DNA of 64,000 bases from Chloroflexaceae bacterium (GTDB lineage Bacteria > Chloroflexota > Chloroflexia > Chloroflexales > Chloroflexaceae), in the NCBI GenBank assembly GCA_012034075.1, contig JAAURD010000001.1, positions 1-64,000 of the forward strand, in the 5' to 3' direction. The notes under the pieces were generated by a model that was given only the letters and a program-made list of their open reading frames with translations, was not told where the DNA came from and made no database searches. Shown here piece by piece: positions 11,133 to 13,330 of the stretch. Every line of letters begins with the position of its first letter. The first letter of the stretch is position 1. A program made the translations under genes and the position numbers.

Positions 11133-12041
11133 TCAACGTTCGTCATTCCGTAATTGGCGAACGTAGCTCTCGTATCGCTCCTGCGTGATGGTTTGCTCTG
11201 CCACTGCCTGACGCACGGCACAGCCAGGCTCATGCGTGTGTAGGCAATTGTGAAAATCACACGCTCCCAGAAAAGGGCGCATCTCAGGGAAACACCAGGC
11301 CAGTTCTTCCTGCGGCACCAGCCAGGCAGCCAGTTCCCGCAGTCCGGGCGTGTCGGCAACATAGCCACCAGCCGGGCCACCGAGCGGGTGCAACTCAGCA
11401 ACGACGGTGGTATGACGGCCCTTATTGACAGCCGTGCTCACGCTGCCTTCTTGTAACGCCAGTTCCGGTTGCAGTGCATTGAGCAGACTGCTCTTGCCCA
11501 CACCAGATGGACCAGTCAACACACTGATACACCCCTCTAGTCGGTCACGCAAGGCTTCGATACCGCTGCCCTGACGGGCACTGACAGAGAGCACCGGGTA
11601 ACCAATCTGCTGATATGGCGCAAACTGTACGTTGACCTGATCGCTACCGACCAGGTCAACTTTATTCGCCACAATCACTGGGGCAATTTCGTTATACTCG
11701 GCAATCACCAGAAACCGATCCAGCAGGCGTGGCTTCATAGGTGGGTTGGCACAGGCAAAGACCAGCACCACTTGATCAACATTGGCAATCAAGATGTCTT
11801 CTTTCCACTGGCCGCGTGAGCCTGGCTGGCGTCGCGAAAAGCGTGAACGACGCTCGTACACCGACTCAATCGCTCCCTGTTCCGGCGAAACGCGCATCAC
11901 TTCCACGTCATCACCGATAACCACAATATCACTCTGTTGACGTTCCTTTTTCAACCGACCACGCAGCCGGCACTCCAGGATCCCTTCATCGGTTTGGACC
12001 CAGAAAAAGCCACTCTGGGCACGCAGCACTTTTCCCTGCAT
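11133..12041 (-). CDS. rsgA: Ribosome small-subunit-dependent GTPase A
   Basis: A 302-residue circularly permuted GTPase that assists late maturation of the 30S ribosomal subunit. An N-terminal OB-fold precedes the GTPase motifs in permuted order: NKVD (G4) near residue 125, GPSGVGKSS (G1) near 177 and DTPG (G3) near 225. A C-terminal zinc finger follows with Cys and His in CDFHNCLHTHEPGC. The ATG at 12041 has a GGAG site about eight bases upstream. It lies 21 bases after the ABC ATPase gene and is probably co-transcribed with it. Confidence 0.95.
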   Translation of the reverse strand: MQGKVLRAQSGFFWVQTDEGILECRLRGRLKKERQQSDIVVIGDDVEVMRVSPEQGAIESVYERRSRFSRRQPGSRGQWKEDILIANVDQVVLVFACANPPMKPRLLDRFLVIAEYNEIAPVIVANKVDLVGSDQVNVQFAPYQQIGYPVLSVSARQGSGIEALRDRLEGCISVLTGPSGVGKSSLLNALQPELALQEGSVSTAVNKGRHTTVVAELHPLGGPAGGYVADTPGLRELAAWLVPQEELAWCFPEMRPFLGACDFHNCLHTHEPGCAVRQAVAEQTITQERYESYVRQLRNDER

Positions 12042-12062: not shown

Positions 12063-12964
12063 CTACGCTAAATCATCGTCGAGACTCTTGCCCGTCAGGG
12101 CCAGAAAGACCTCTTCCATTGTCGCCGGTCGGTCATACCCCTGCGCAGCGGCAATCTGCTGCTTCAGTCCATCGGGTGTATCGAGCGCCACAATGCGACC
12201 GCTATCAATAATGGCAATCCGGTCACAGAGCCGGTCGGCTTCATCCATATCGTGCGTGGTCAGAAAGACCGTTGTATCATGTTCGGCTCGCATGCGCAGC
12301 ACAAAACGCTGCACATCGTGCTTCGAGCGTGGGTCAAGGCCGGTGGTTGGCTCATCCAACAACAGGAGCACGGCGCCGTGAGCAGGCCACGAGCAATCGC
12401 AACTTTCTGCTGCATACCCCGTGACATGTGCTCTAGTGGTTCAGAGAGCCGTTTCTCTTTTAACCCAAGCTGTTGCAAAATCGCCCCGGCTTGCTGGCGT
12501 GCCTCCACTATCGGCAAATCATACAGACGTGCCGCATACATCAAATTTTCAAAGGCCGAGAGCTTCTTAAAGAAGGCTGCCTCAACGCTCACGCGGTTAA
12601 TGAGTTGCTGTACCTGACGCCCTTCACGTTCAACATCATAGCCAAAGACGGTGATGTTGCCGGCATCCGGGTATAAGAGCGTTGAAATCAGCCGGATAAG
12701 TGTTGACTTACCAGAACCGTTGGCCCCCAATAAACCGAAGATTTCGCCCCGGCGGATCTCCAGGCTGATATGATCGACTGCCAGCGTGATGCTGGGCAAT
12801 GTGACAGCCTGTTTCCGCAGTCGTGCGGTCCAAGGGGGATGTTGTTTGCCAAAACGTTTCACAACATCCACAATCTCAAGGGCTGTTTCGGCCACTGTCA
12901 GTTCTGGTGGTCGAGTCAGCAGATCATGGAGCAGGGAAGCAGTCGGGTCTTGCAGATGAATCAC
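12063..12964 (-). CDS. ABC transporter ATP-binding protein, DrrA/CcmA-like (one-base shift)
   Basis: About 300 residues when joined. The N-terminal part has Walker A (GANGSGKST), a Q-loop region and the signature helix in EHMSRGMQQKVAIARGLL. The C-terminal part in the next frame has Walker B (LLLLDEPTTGLDP) and the switch His (LTTHDMDE). Adding one base near 12371-12378 fuses them, so the break is probably a sequencing error. The start is GTG 12964 with AAAAGGAG upstream. The class pairs with ABC-2 permeases for drug, lipid or polysaccharide export, but no permease is adjacent. The leader region upstream suggests regulated expression. Confidence 0.8.
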
Positions 12965-13022
12965 TGCGATCTCCTTTTATAGTTTTATGTTTTGTTGTGA
13001 CCGATAAAAACCGAATCAAAAA

Positions 13023-13097
13023 CCGTGAGCGCATACTGCTCTCACGGCTTGAACACCAAAAAGCCGTGAGCATCAGGGTATCTGCTGCCCACGGCTT
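13023..13097 (-). terminator. Tandem terminator hairpins with a competing anti-terminator pairing
   Basis: Read leftwards, hairpin 1 pairs AAGCCGTG (13097-13090) with CACGGCTT (13068-13061) and is followed by a T run. Hairpin 2 pairs CCGTGAG (13047-13041) with CTCACGG (13029-13023) and is also followed by T5. The 3' arm of hairpin 1 and the 5' arm of hairpin 2 can instead form a perfect 10-bp stem, CTCACGGCTT with AAGCCGTGAG, that destroys both. It may simply end the upstream sugar operon, but it lies downstream of a promoter and small ORF and upstream of the ABC ATPase, as an attenuator would. Confidence 0.6.
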
Positions 13098-13130
13098 CCA
13101 TATGCTCAGTTTATCAGGGTGGTGTGAGGT

Positions 13131-13241
13131 TCATTGTTTGAGCTTTTGGAAAATGGGCAGAATCGTCCCTAGAAACACCATAGGTGTGAACTGCAAGCGA
13201 TGTGCAATCCCCTGGGTTTGTATGATGAGAACATTTCTCAT
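13131..13241 (-). CDS. Possible 36-residue leader peptide
   Basis: A short frame with ATG at 13241 preceded by an AAAGGGAG ribosome binding site, beginning MRNVLIIQTQGIAHR and ending FQKLKQ. It lies about 55 bases after the predicted transcription start and ends about 35 bases before the first of two competing hairpins. No homology is recognised; the position suggests a translated leader whose translation influences the downstream hairpins. It could equally be a chance frame. Confidence 0.4.
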   Translation of the reverse strand: MRNVLIIQTQGIAHRLQFTPMVFLGTILPIFQKLKQ

Positions 13242-13300
13242 AACGACGTCTCCCTTTCCAAAAGCAATTTCAGGCTCTCAAAAGCCCGATGCGTTTGTTA

Positions 13301-13330
13301 TTATACCATAGTATGGTACGGTTTGTCAAC
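13301..13330 (-). promoter_or_regulatory. Promoter with palindromic operator for the ABC ATPase leader
   Basis: On the minus strand TTGACA (13330-13325) and TATAAT (13306-13301) are separated by 18 bases, with an extended -10 TG. Between them lies a perfect odd-centred 15-base palindrome, TACCATAGTATGGTA at 13305-13319. A dyad filling the promoter spacer is a typical repressor or MerR-type activator site. Confidence 0.7.

What the first reader, a model, noticed from the sequence alone, without database searches (positions are those of the whole stretch)
13023..13330. Operator-controlled leader with a small ORF and mutually exclusive terminators before an ABC ATPase
Within 310 bases on the minus strand lie a near-consensus promoter with an 18-base spacer, a 15-base perfect palindrome inside that spacer, a 36-codon ORF with its own ribosome binding site, and two T-tailed hairpins whose inner arms can form a competing perfect 10-bp stem. 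That is the classical layout of a transcription attenuator, here upstream of a DrrA/CcmA-type ABC ATPase and rsgA. Ribosome-stalling leaders of this kind are known for antibiotic-responsive genes. The simple alternative, that the hairpins only terminate the upstream sugar operon, cannot be excluded.
Basis: partly seen in the sequence, partly recalled or inferred. Interest (0 to 1): 0.75.

Follow-up and report, generated by a model that had tools for sequence, protein, structure and literature searches.

The report
Translation-sensing leader before ABC–rsgA genes
This stretch is one copy of an apparently undescribed RNA switch, found across the bacterial phylum Chloroflexota, that probably lets genes for drug export, ribosome modification and ribosome assembly be transcribed only when ribosomes fail to finish a short decoy gene, so it may work as an antibiotic or translation-stress alarm.

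Summary
The end of the small ORF (CTGCCCATTTTCC plus GCTCA) pairs with the bases before and inside the first terminator arm (TGAGC plus GGAA..GTGGGCAG). This hairpin encloses the ORF's stop codon and excludes terminator 1.

A covariance model found the same leader in 46 of 82 genomes of the order, and at E<=0.001 in 52 of 400 genomes sampled across the phylum. In 72 diverse copies the antiterminator arms match their own partners far better than swapped partners (z = -13); four non-partner pairings show no effect and a fifth only a weak one.

Targets are rsgA, DrrAB- and MsbA-type exporters, SpoU-type rRNA methylases, phosphotransferases, an acetyltransferase and MFS pumps, which suggests induction by translation inhibitors. 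The "operator" is not conserved. No Rfam match and no published description were found. The sign of regulation and the inducer are inferred.

The parts
13300..13329 (-). Promoter TTGACA-18-TATAAT with TG before the -10; homologous leaders have TTGACA-17/18-TGnTATnCT
   Evidence: 12/12 consensus; promoters at matching positions in relatives, mean score 10.0 vs 8.0 in shuffles
13304..13318 (.). 15-nt perfect palindrome in the spacer; operator role not supported
   Evidence: one perfect copy in the 5 Mb genome, not enriched; no 7-bp-arm palindrome in any other leader promoter
13250..13259 (-). Ribosome-binding site GGAAAGGGAG of the leader ORF
   Evidence: sequence; GAAAGG/AAAGGAG-type sites before most homologous leader ORFs
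13131..13241 (-). Leader ORF, 36 codons, ends ...ILPIFQKLKQ-stop
   Evidence: CCC codon followed by exactly 7 codons and a stop, the commonest spacing (37 of 72); frame kept open in homologues
13148..13160 (-). Antiterminator 5' arm, region 1 (CTGCCCATTTTCC), inside the ORF
   Evidence: pairs with 13099-13085; covariation
13139..13143 (-). Antiterminator 5' arm, X (GCTCA), inside the ORF
   Evidence: pairs with 13108-13104; own-vs-swapped z -9.8 over 72 leaders
13104..13108 (-). Antiterminator 3' arm, Y (TGAGC)
13085..13099 (-). A1 (GGAAGCCGTGGGCAG): 5' arm of terminator 1 and 3' arm of the antiterminator
   Evidence: covaries with two different partners
13058..13071 (-). A2 (GCTCACGGCTT) and T-tract: 3' half of terminator 1
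13041..13050 (-). B1 (AAGCCGTGAG): 5' arm of terminator 2; perfect 10-bp complement of A2
   Evidence: A2:B1 own-vs-swapped z -6.3 in 40 leaders
13018..13030 (-). B2 (GCTCACGG) and T-tract: 3' half of terminator 2
12971..12977 (-). Ribosome-binding site AAAGGAG of the ABC ATPase gene
   Evidence: sequence
12063..12964 (-). DrrA-like ABC ATPase gene, GTG start, interrupted by a one-base frameshift near 12371
   Evidence: ORFs 12260-12964 and 12063-12371; Pfam ABC_tran; best NCBIfam drrA
11133..12041 (-). rsgA, ribosome small-subunit-dependent GTPase
   Evidence: Pfam RsgA_GTPase 2.6e-54; TIGR00157 235.9 bits, cut-off 100

Best explanation
It is a ribosome-dependent transcription attenuator, one member of a Chloroflexota-wide leader family. 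Transcription starts just downstream of 13300 and a ribosome follows on the 36-codon ORF. If it reaches the last codons, it covers region 1 and X, so the antiterminator hairpin (region 1+X paired with Y+A1) cannot form; A1 pairs with A2 (terminator 1) and, if that fails, B1 with B2 (terminator 2), and the ABC ATPase-rsgA genes stay off. If ribosomes are blocked early in the ORF (for example by an antibiotic) or are too slow, region 1 and X are free, the antiterminator forms before A2 is made, the freed A2 can pair with B1 and disarm terminator 2, and RNA polymerase reads through. Shown: the elements, their conservation, coordinated change in the pairing arms, the open ORF with a positioned stop, the type of target genes. 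Inferred: translation of the ORF, the kinetic choice, the sign of regulation, the inducer.
For: Covariance model hits in 46/82 genomes of the order and, at E<=0.001, 52/400 sampled in the phylum. Own-versus-swapped partner test on 72 leaders: antiterminator z -13.2, X:Y -9.8, region 1:A1 -5.5, A1:A2 -10.8; non-partners R:Y -0.4, X:A2 -0.8, R:A2 +1.0, Y:A2 -0.5, X:A1 -1.9. Column counts: region 1:A1 86% paired with 32 double changes against 13 in shuffles. Stop codon exactly 7 codons after the CCC in 37/72; few stops in frame upstream (1 versus 10 and 20 in the other frames). Before A2 exists the antiterminator is predicted at median P 0.97, and at 0.00 with a ribosome over region 1; window 0.98 and 0.00. 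A2:B1 covaries, z -6.3. Targets are exporters, rRNA and other methylases, phosphotransferases, MFS pumps and rsgA. Experimental precedents: bmrB (PMC4191407), rli80-hflXr (PMC6310831), vmlR (PMC9226507).
Against: No expression data. With A2 present at equilibrium, terminator 1 wins in nearly all leaders whatever the ribosome does, so the switch must be kinetic. A ribosome parked at the stop codon leaves region 1 partly free (median P 0.43; window 0.10). The leader peptide is not conserved upstream of its last residues, so no specific stalling signal is identified. Outside the class, the region 1:A1 test alone is weak (z -1.3) because those bases hardly vary. bmrB needs translation for induction, so a no-ribosome state may not mean ON. 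Duplication of terminator 1 could explain part of the A2:B1 signal.
Confidence: 0.8

Rival explanations
1. The two hairpins simply terminate transcription of the upstream (sugar/glycan) genes; the rest is chance.
For: They lie downstream of co-directional genes in the window and are strong terminators.
Against: A consensus promoter and an ORF lie between the upstream gene and the hairpins, here and in relatives. In L032, L034 and L035 the upstream genes are divergent. Arms of the hairpin covary with the ORF's 3' end, and the hairpins travel with target genes, not with upstream genes.
Confidence: 0.04
2. An amino-acid-starvation attenuator: ribosomes stall at codons for a scarce amino acid in the leader.
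For: Same general layout. A Met-rich leader before metG in Roseiflexus-type genomes shares the T1 hairpin.
Against: No amino acid recurs in the leaders before resistance-type genes or rsgA, and the targets are not biosynthetic genes.
Confidence: 0.07
3. A drug-specific arrest-peptide leader (erm/hflXr type) that stalls at a +X+ motif near the ORF's end.
For: Many leaders end in RRLKR, KLKQ or RRRR; +X+ occurs in the last nine residues of 18 of 57; hflXr uses RLR (PMC6310831).
Against: The motif is missing in most leaders (for example ...LLLHS...LVLLS). The basic residues are encoded by the X arm and change when the helix sequence changes. A ribosome stalled there covers region 1 and would favour termination.
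Confidence: 0.1
4. A repressor-controlled promoter with the palindrome as operator is the main control point.
For: Perfect 15-nt palindrome in the spacer of a consensus promoter.
Against: Not conserved in any homologous leader; single perfect copy and no enrichment in the genome.
Confidence: 0.05

Closest known systems
bmrB leader of bmrCD, Bacillus subtilis (PMC4191407)
   Same: Leader ORF plus alternative stem-loops control read-through into ABC exporter genes; induced by ribosome-targeting antibiotics
   Different: In bmrB the terminator lies inside the coding region; here the antiterminator encloses the stop codon, the terminator lies after it, and there is often a second, relayed terminator; phylum and sequence differ
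rli80-hflXr attenuator, Listeria (PMC6310831)
   Same: Leader ORF, terminator and antiterminator before a ribosome-associated GTPase gene, comparable to rsgA
   Different: 14-codon ORF with an RLR stalling motif; no conserved stalling motif here
vmlR leader, Bacillus subtilis (PMC9226507)
   Same: uORF, antiterminator and anti-antiterminator; induced by drugs and by ribosome assembly defects
   Different: Also uses translation attenuation and NusG pausing; target is an ABC-F protein, not an ABC exporter
uORFC-6-1 motif before hflX, Bacillales (PMC8632094)
   Same: Candidate uORF attenuator before a ribosome-rescue gene, found by comparative genomics
   Different: Different phylum; that paper's main text does not mention Chloroflexi or rsgA

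Membership tests
Ribosome-mediated transcription attenuator | Own promoter and short translatable ORF with ribosome-binding site | tested here: met
Ribosome-mediated transcription attenuator | Intrinsic terminator between the ORF and the structural gene | tested here: met
Ribosome-mediated transcription attenuator | Antiterminator exclusive with the terminator and overlapping the ORF | tested here: met
Ribosome-mediated transcription attenuator | Translation of the ORF controls read-through | not testable with these tools
   only folding with a masked ribosome footprint was possible
erm/hflXr-type macrolide leader | Conserved arrest motif such as RLR (+X+) | tested here: not met
   +X+ in the last nine residues of 18/57 leader peptides, absent in the rest
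Any described Rfam family (release 15) | Score above the family's gathering threshold | tested here: not met
   no match at gathering in the window leader; only chance-level matches at E<=5; none for the leader in ten relatives
DrrA (TIGR01188) | Curated cut-off 312 bits | tested here: not met
   137 bits for the frameshifted window protein; 240 bits for intact relative L122: DrrA-like only
RsgA | TIGR00157 cut-off 100 bits | tested here: met
   235.9 bits

The most novel reading that the evidence does not exclude
A phylum-wide RNA family, absent from Rfam, that measures whether ribosomes finish a decoy ORF rather than sensing one drug or one arrest peptide, and that in Chloroflexales couples a ribosome-maturation GTPase (rsgA) to antibiotic exporters, using two relayed antiterminators (region 1+X:Y+A1, then A2:B1).
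Probability: 0.5. Interest if true: 0.75.

Novelty: new variant of a known kind. Interest (0 to 1): 0.63.

Why it matters
Ribosome-mediated attenuators of resistance genes are known mainly from a few model bacteria. This family offers dozens of natural variants in a deep, little-studied phylum, ties rsgA to translation-stress control, and marks likely resistance genes (exporters, rRNA methylases, phosphotransferases, MFS pumps) in uncharacterised genomes. It also gives a clear case in which RNA pairing and stop-codon position, not the leader peptide, are what selection keeps.

Tried and rejected
Direct DNA search of 60 relatives with the leader found nothing outside the own genome: it is too diverged for BLAST, and loci had to be reached through the ABC protein and then a covariance model. 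Operator hypothesis: rejected. Rfam: no match. Equilibrium folding as a predictor of the switch failed; only the pre-A2 intermediate separates ribosome states, and its shuffled control (any upstream partner, mean 0.69) shows that A1 pairs easily with something, so this folding result alone is weak evidence. Peptide conservation test: negative. An enriched arrest motif near the leader N-terminus was sought; only Met/Asn/Ile/Thr/Lys enrichment, which could simply be that of gene starts, was seen. Literature searches for a Chloroflexi attenuator or an rsgA leader found none.

Full report
OBSERVATION. The promoter matches the consensus at 12 of 12 positions. The 36-codon ORF has a ribosome-binding site. 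Two hairpins with T-tracts follow; together they fold at -44.4 kcal/mol, z -6.4 against shuffles. The 10-bp stem CTCACGGCTT:AAGCCGTGAG between the inner arms is perfect. One correction: the two terminators can coexist; the inner stem excludes both.

WHERE IT IS. The window lies in a 5.0 Mb assembly, 88% complete. The nearest named relatives of the ABC protein are Chloroflexaceae and Roseiflexus MAGs. Downstream are a DrrA-like ABC ATPase, broken by a one-base frameshift near 12371, and rsgA.

CONSERVED ARCHITECTURE. A direct DNA search found no relative, but the stretch upstream of the homologous ABC gene in many Chloroflexales has the same plan with different letters: promoter, short ORF, GCCGTGGGC...GCTCACGGC terminator, usually a second terminator. 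I aligned 13, built covariance model R1 and searched. It matched 46 of 82 genomes of the order, 55 of 158 of the class including that order, and at E<=0.001 52 of 400 drawn from the phylum, many before unrelated genes.

Near its end the ORF carries xUGCCCAC (region 1), complementary to the terminator arm A1 (GUGGGCAx), and a second stretch X complementary to Y just before A1. Together they form one hairpin around the stop codon that cannot coexist with terminator 1. In the window: CTGCCCATTTTCC..GCTCA with TGAGC..GGAAGCCGTGGGCAG. Examples of paired change: CUACCCAC:GUGGGUAG (L088) against CUGCCCAC:GUGGGCAG (L004); X:Y as GGCUCA:UGAGC, GUGCUU:AAGCAC (L019), CGGAGAC:GUCUCCG (L013). Column counts: 86% of region 1:A1 cells pair, 32 cells with changes on both sides against 13 in shuffles, and every slid register is far worse; the wider set gives 83%, 35 against 17. 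Terminator 1 itself pairs at 98.9%. The R1 alignment was fitted to terminator 1 only, not to this helix.

ALIGNMENT-FREE TEST. For 72 leaders less than 75% identical I computed duplex energies of each arm with its own and with swapped partners: A1:A2 z -10.8, region 1:A1 -5.5, X:Y -9.8, whole antiterminator -13.2. Arms not meant to pair: -0.4, -0.8, +1.0, -0.5, and X:A1 -1.9. In the 31 leaders outside the class the antiterminator still gives -6.1, although region 1:A1 alone is only -1.3 because it hardly varies.

THE ORF. The frame is open for at least 16 codons before the CCC in 71 of 72 leaders; in the 61 leaders with an exact CCC, codons -15 to -5 hold 1 stop in frame against 10 and 20 in the other frames. 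The stop falls exactly seven codons after the CCC in 37 of 72, five in another lineage, nine to twelve in others. The stop column contributed to the model, so its constancy is partly selected for. The peptide is not conserved upstream, and its C-terminal residues follow the helix sequence. Selection therefore seems to keep an ORF, its stop and the pairing, not a peptide.

MECHANISM. With A2 absent, the antiterminator is predicted at median P 0.97, and at 0.00 with a ribosome footprint over region 1 (window 0.98 and 0.00). With A2 present at equilibrium, terminator 1 wins almost always, so the choice must be kinetic: the antiterminator forms first and blocks the loop-proximal part of A1, where terminator 1 would nucleate. 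The simplest reading is: ribosome finishes the ORF, genes off; ribosome held upstream, genes on, with A2:B1 disarming terminator 2. The sign and the kinetic step are inferred.

TARGETS. Besides the ABC-rsgA operon, copies precede rsgA without the ABC gene (for example L074, L076, L077, L078, L082, L088), DrrA/DrrB-type exporters, MsbA-type exporters, class I methyltransferases, SpoU-type rRNA methylases related to RlmB and NshR/TsnR (L155, L166), phosphotransferases (L147, L167), a GNAT enzyme (L157) and MFS pumps distantly related to Mef/Tap (L143). Assignments rest on Pfam/NCBIfam matches for the representatives scanned and on sequence resemblance for the rest; the NCBIfam resistance models are matched below their curated cut-offs. 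This is the spectrum expected of a response to ribosome-targeting compounds.

ALTERNATIVES. The hairpins are not merely the end of the upstream operon: the leaders have their own promoters and upstream genes are divergent in L032, L034, L035. The palindrome is not a conserved operator.

KNOWN RELATIVES. It works like the leaders of bmrCD, hflXr and vmlR, where experiments show antibiotic-dependent read-through (PMC4191407, PMC6310831, PMC9226507). It is not an erm/hflXr-type RLR leader by sequence, matches no Rfam family, and I found no paper describing it. I rate it a new variant of a known kind.

Noticed in passing
window 12260-12964 and 12063-12371 (-): The ABC ATPase gene is split by a one-base frameshift at LTAP/VLLLLDEP, where relatives are intact; probably an assembly or sequencing error.
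   Followed up: partly
L096, L101, L174-L177 (Roseiflexus-type genomes, genus g23): Upstream of metG (methionyl-tRNA synthetase) lies a Met-rich leader ORF (for example MHTPRDMPDDRLPRAMRMMGIMSPAVCMSPG) followed by a similar GCCGTGGGC terminator: a candidate methionine-codon attenuator of metG.
   Followed up: partly
L053, 160 bases after the hit, and homologues in most rsgA loci: A conserved small protein (about 70 aa, VIILERDGSL...) with no Pfam match sits between leader and ABC/rsgA in most relatives but is missing in the window.
   Followed up: no
window 13270-13289 (-): A further small hairpin (TCGGGCTTTTGAGAGCCTGA) followed by a T-rich stretch lies between the promoter and the leader ORF's ribosome-binding site; role unknown.
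   Followed up: no
G000:C164:19679-20530 (L173): The ABC-2 permease that sits in the ABC-rsgA operon of relatives is encoded elsewhere in the window's genome, 66% identical to the L030 protein.
   Followed up: no
L084:2843-3110 (+): A T-box leader (Rfam RF00230, 104.7 bits) lies near the attenuator-methyltransferase locus.
   Followed up: no
L146, L149: Two copies of the leader in one large genome precede near-identical genes of about 668 codons that look like S9-type peptidases, an unusual target.
   Followed up: no
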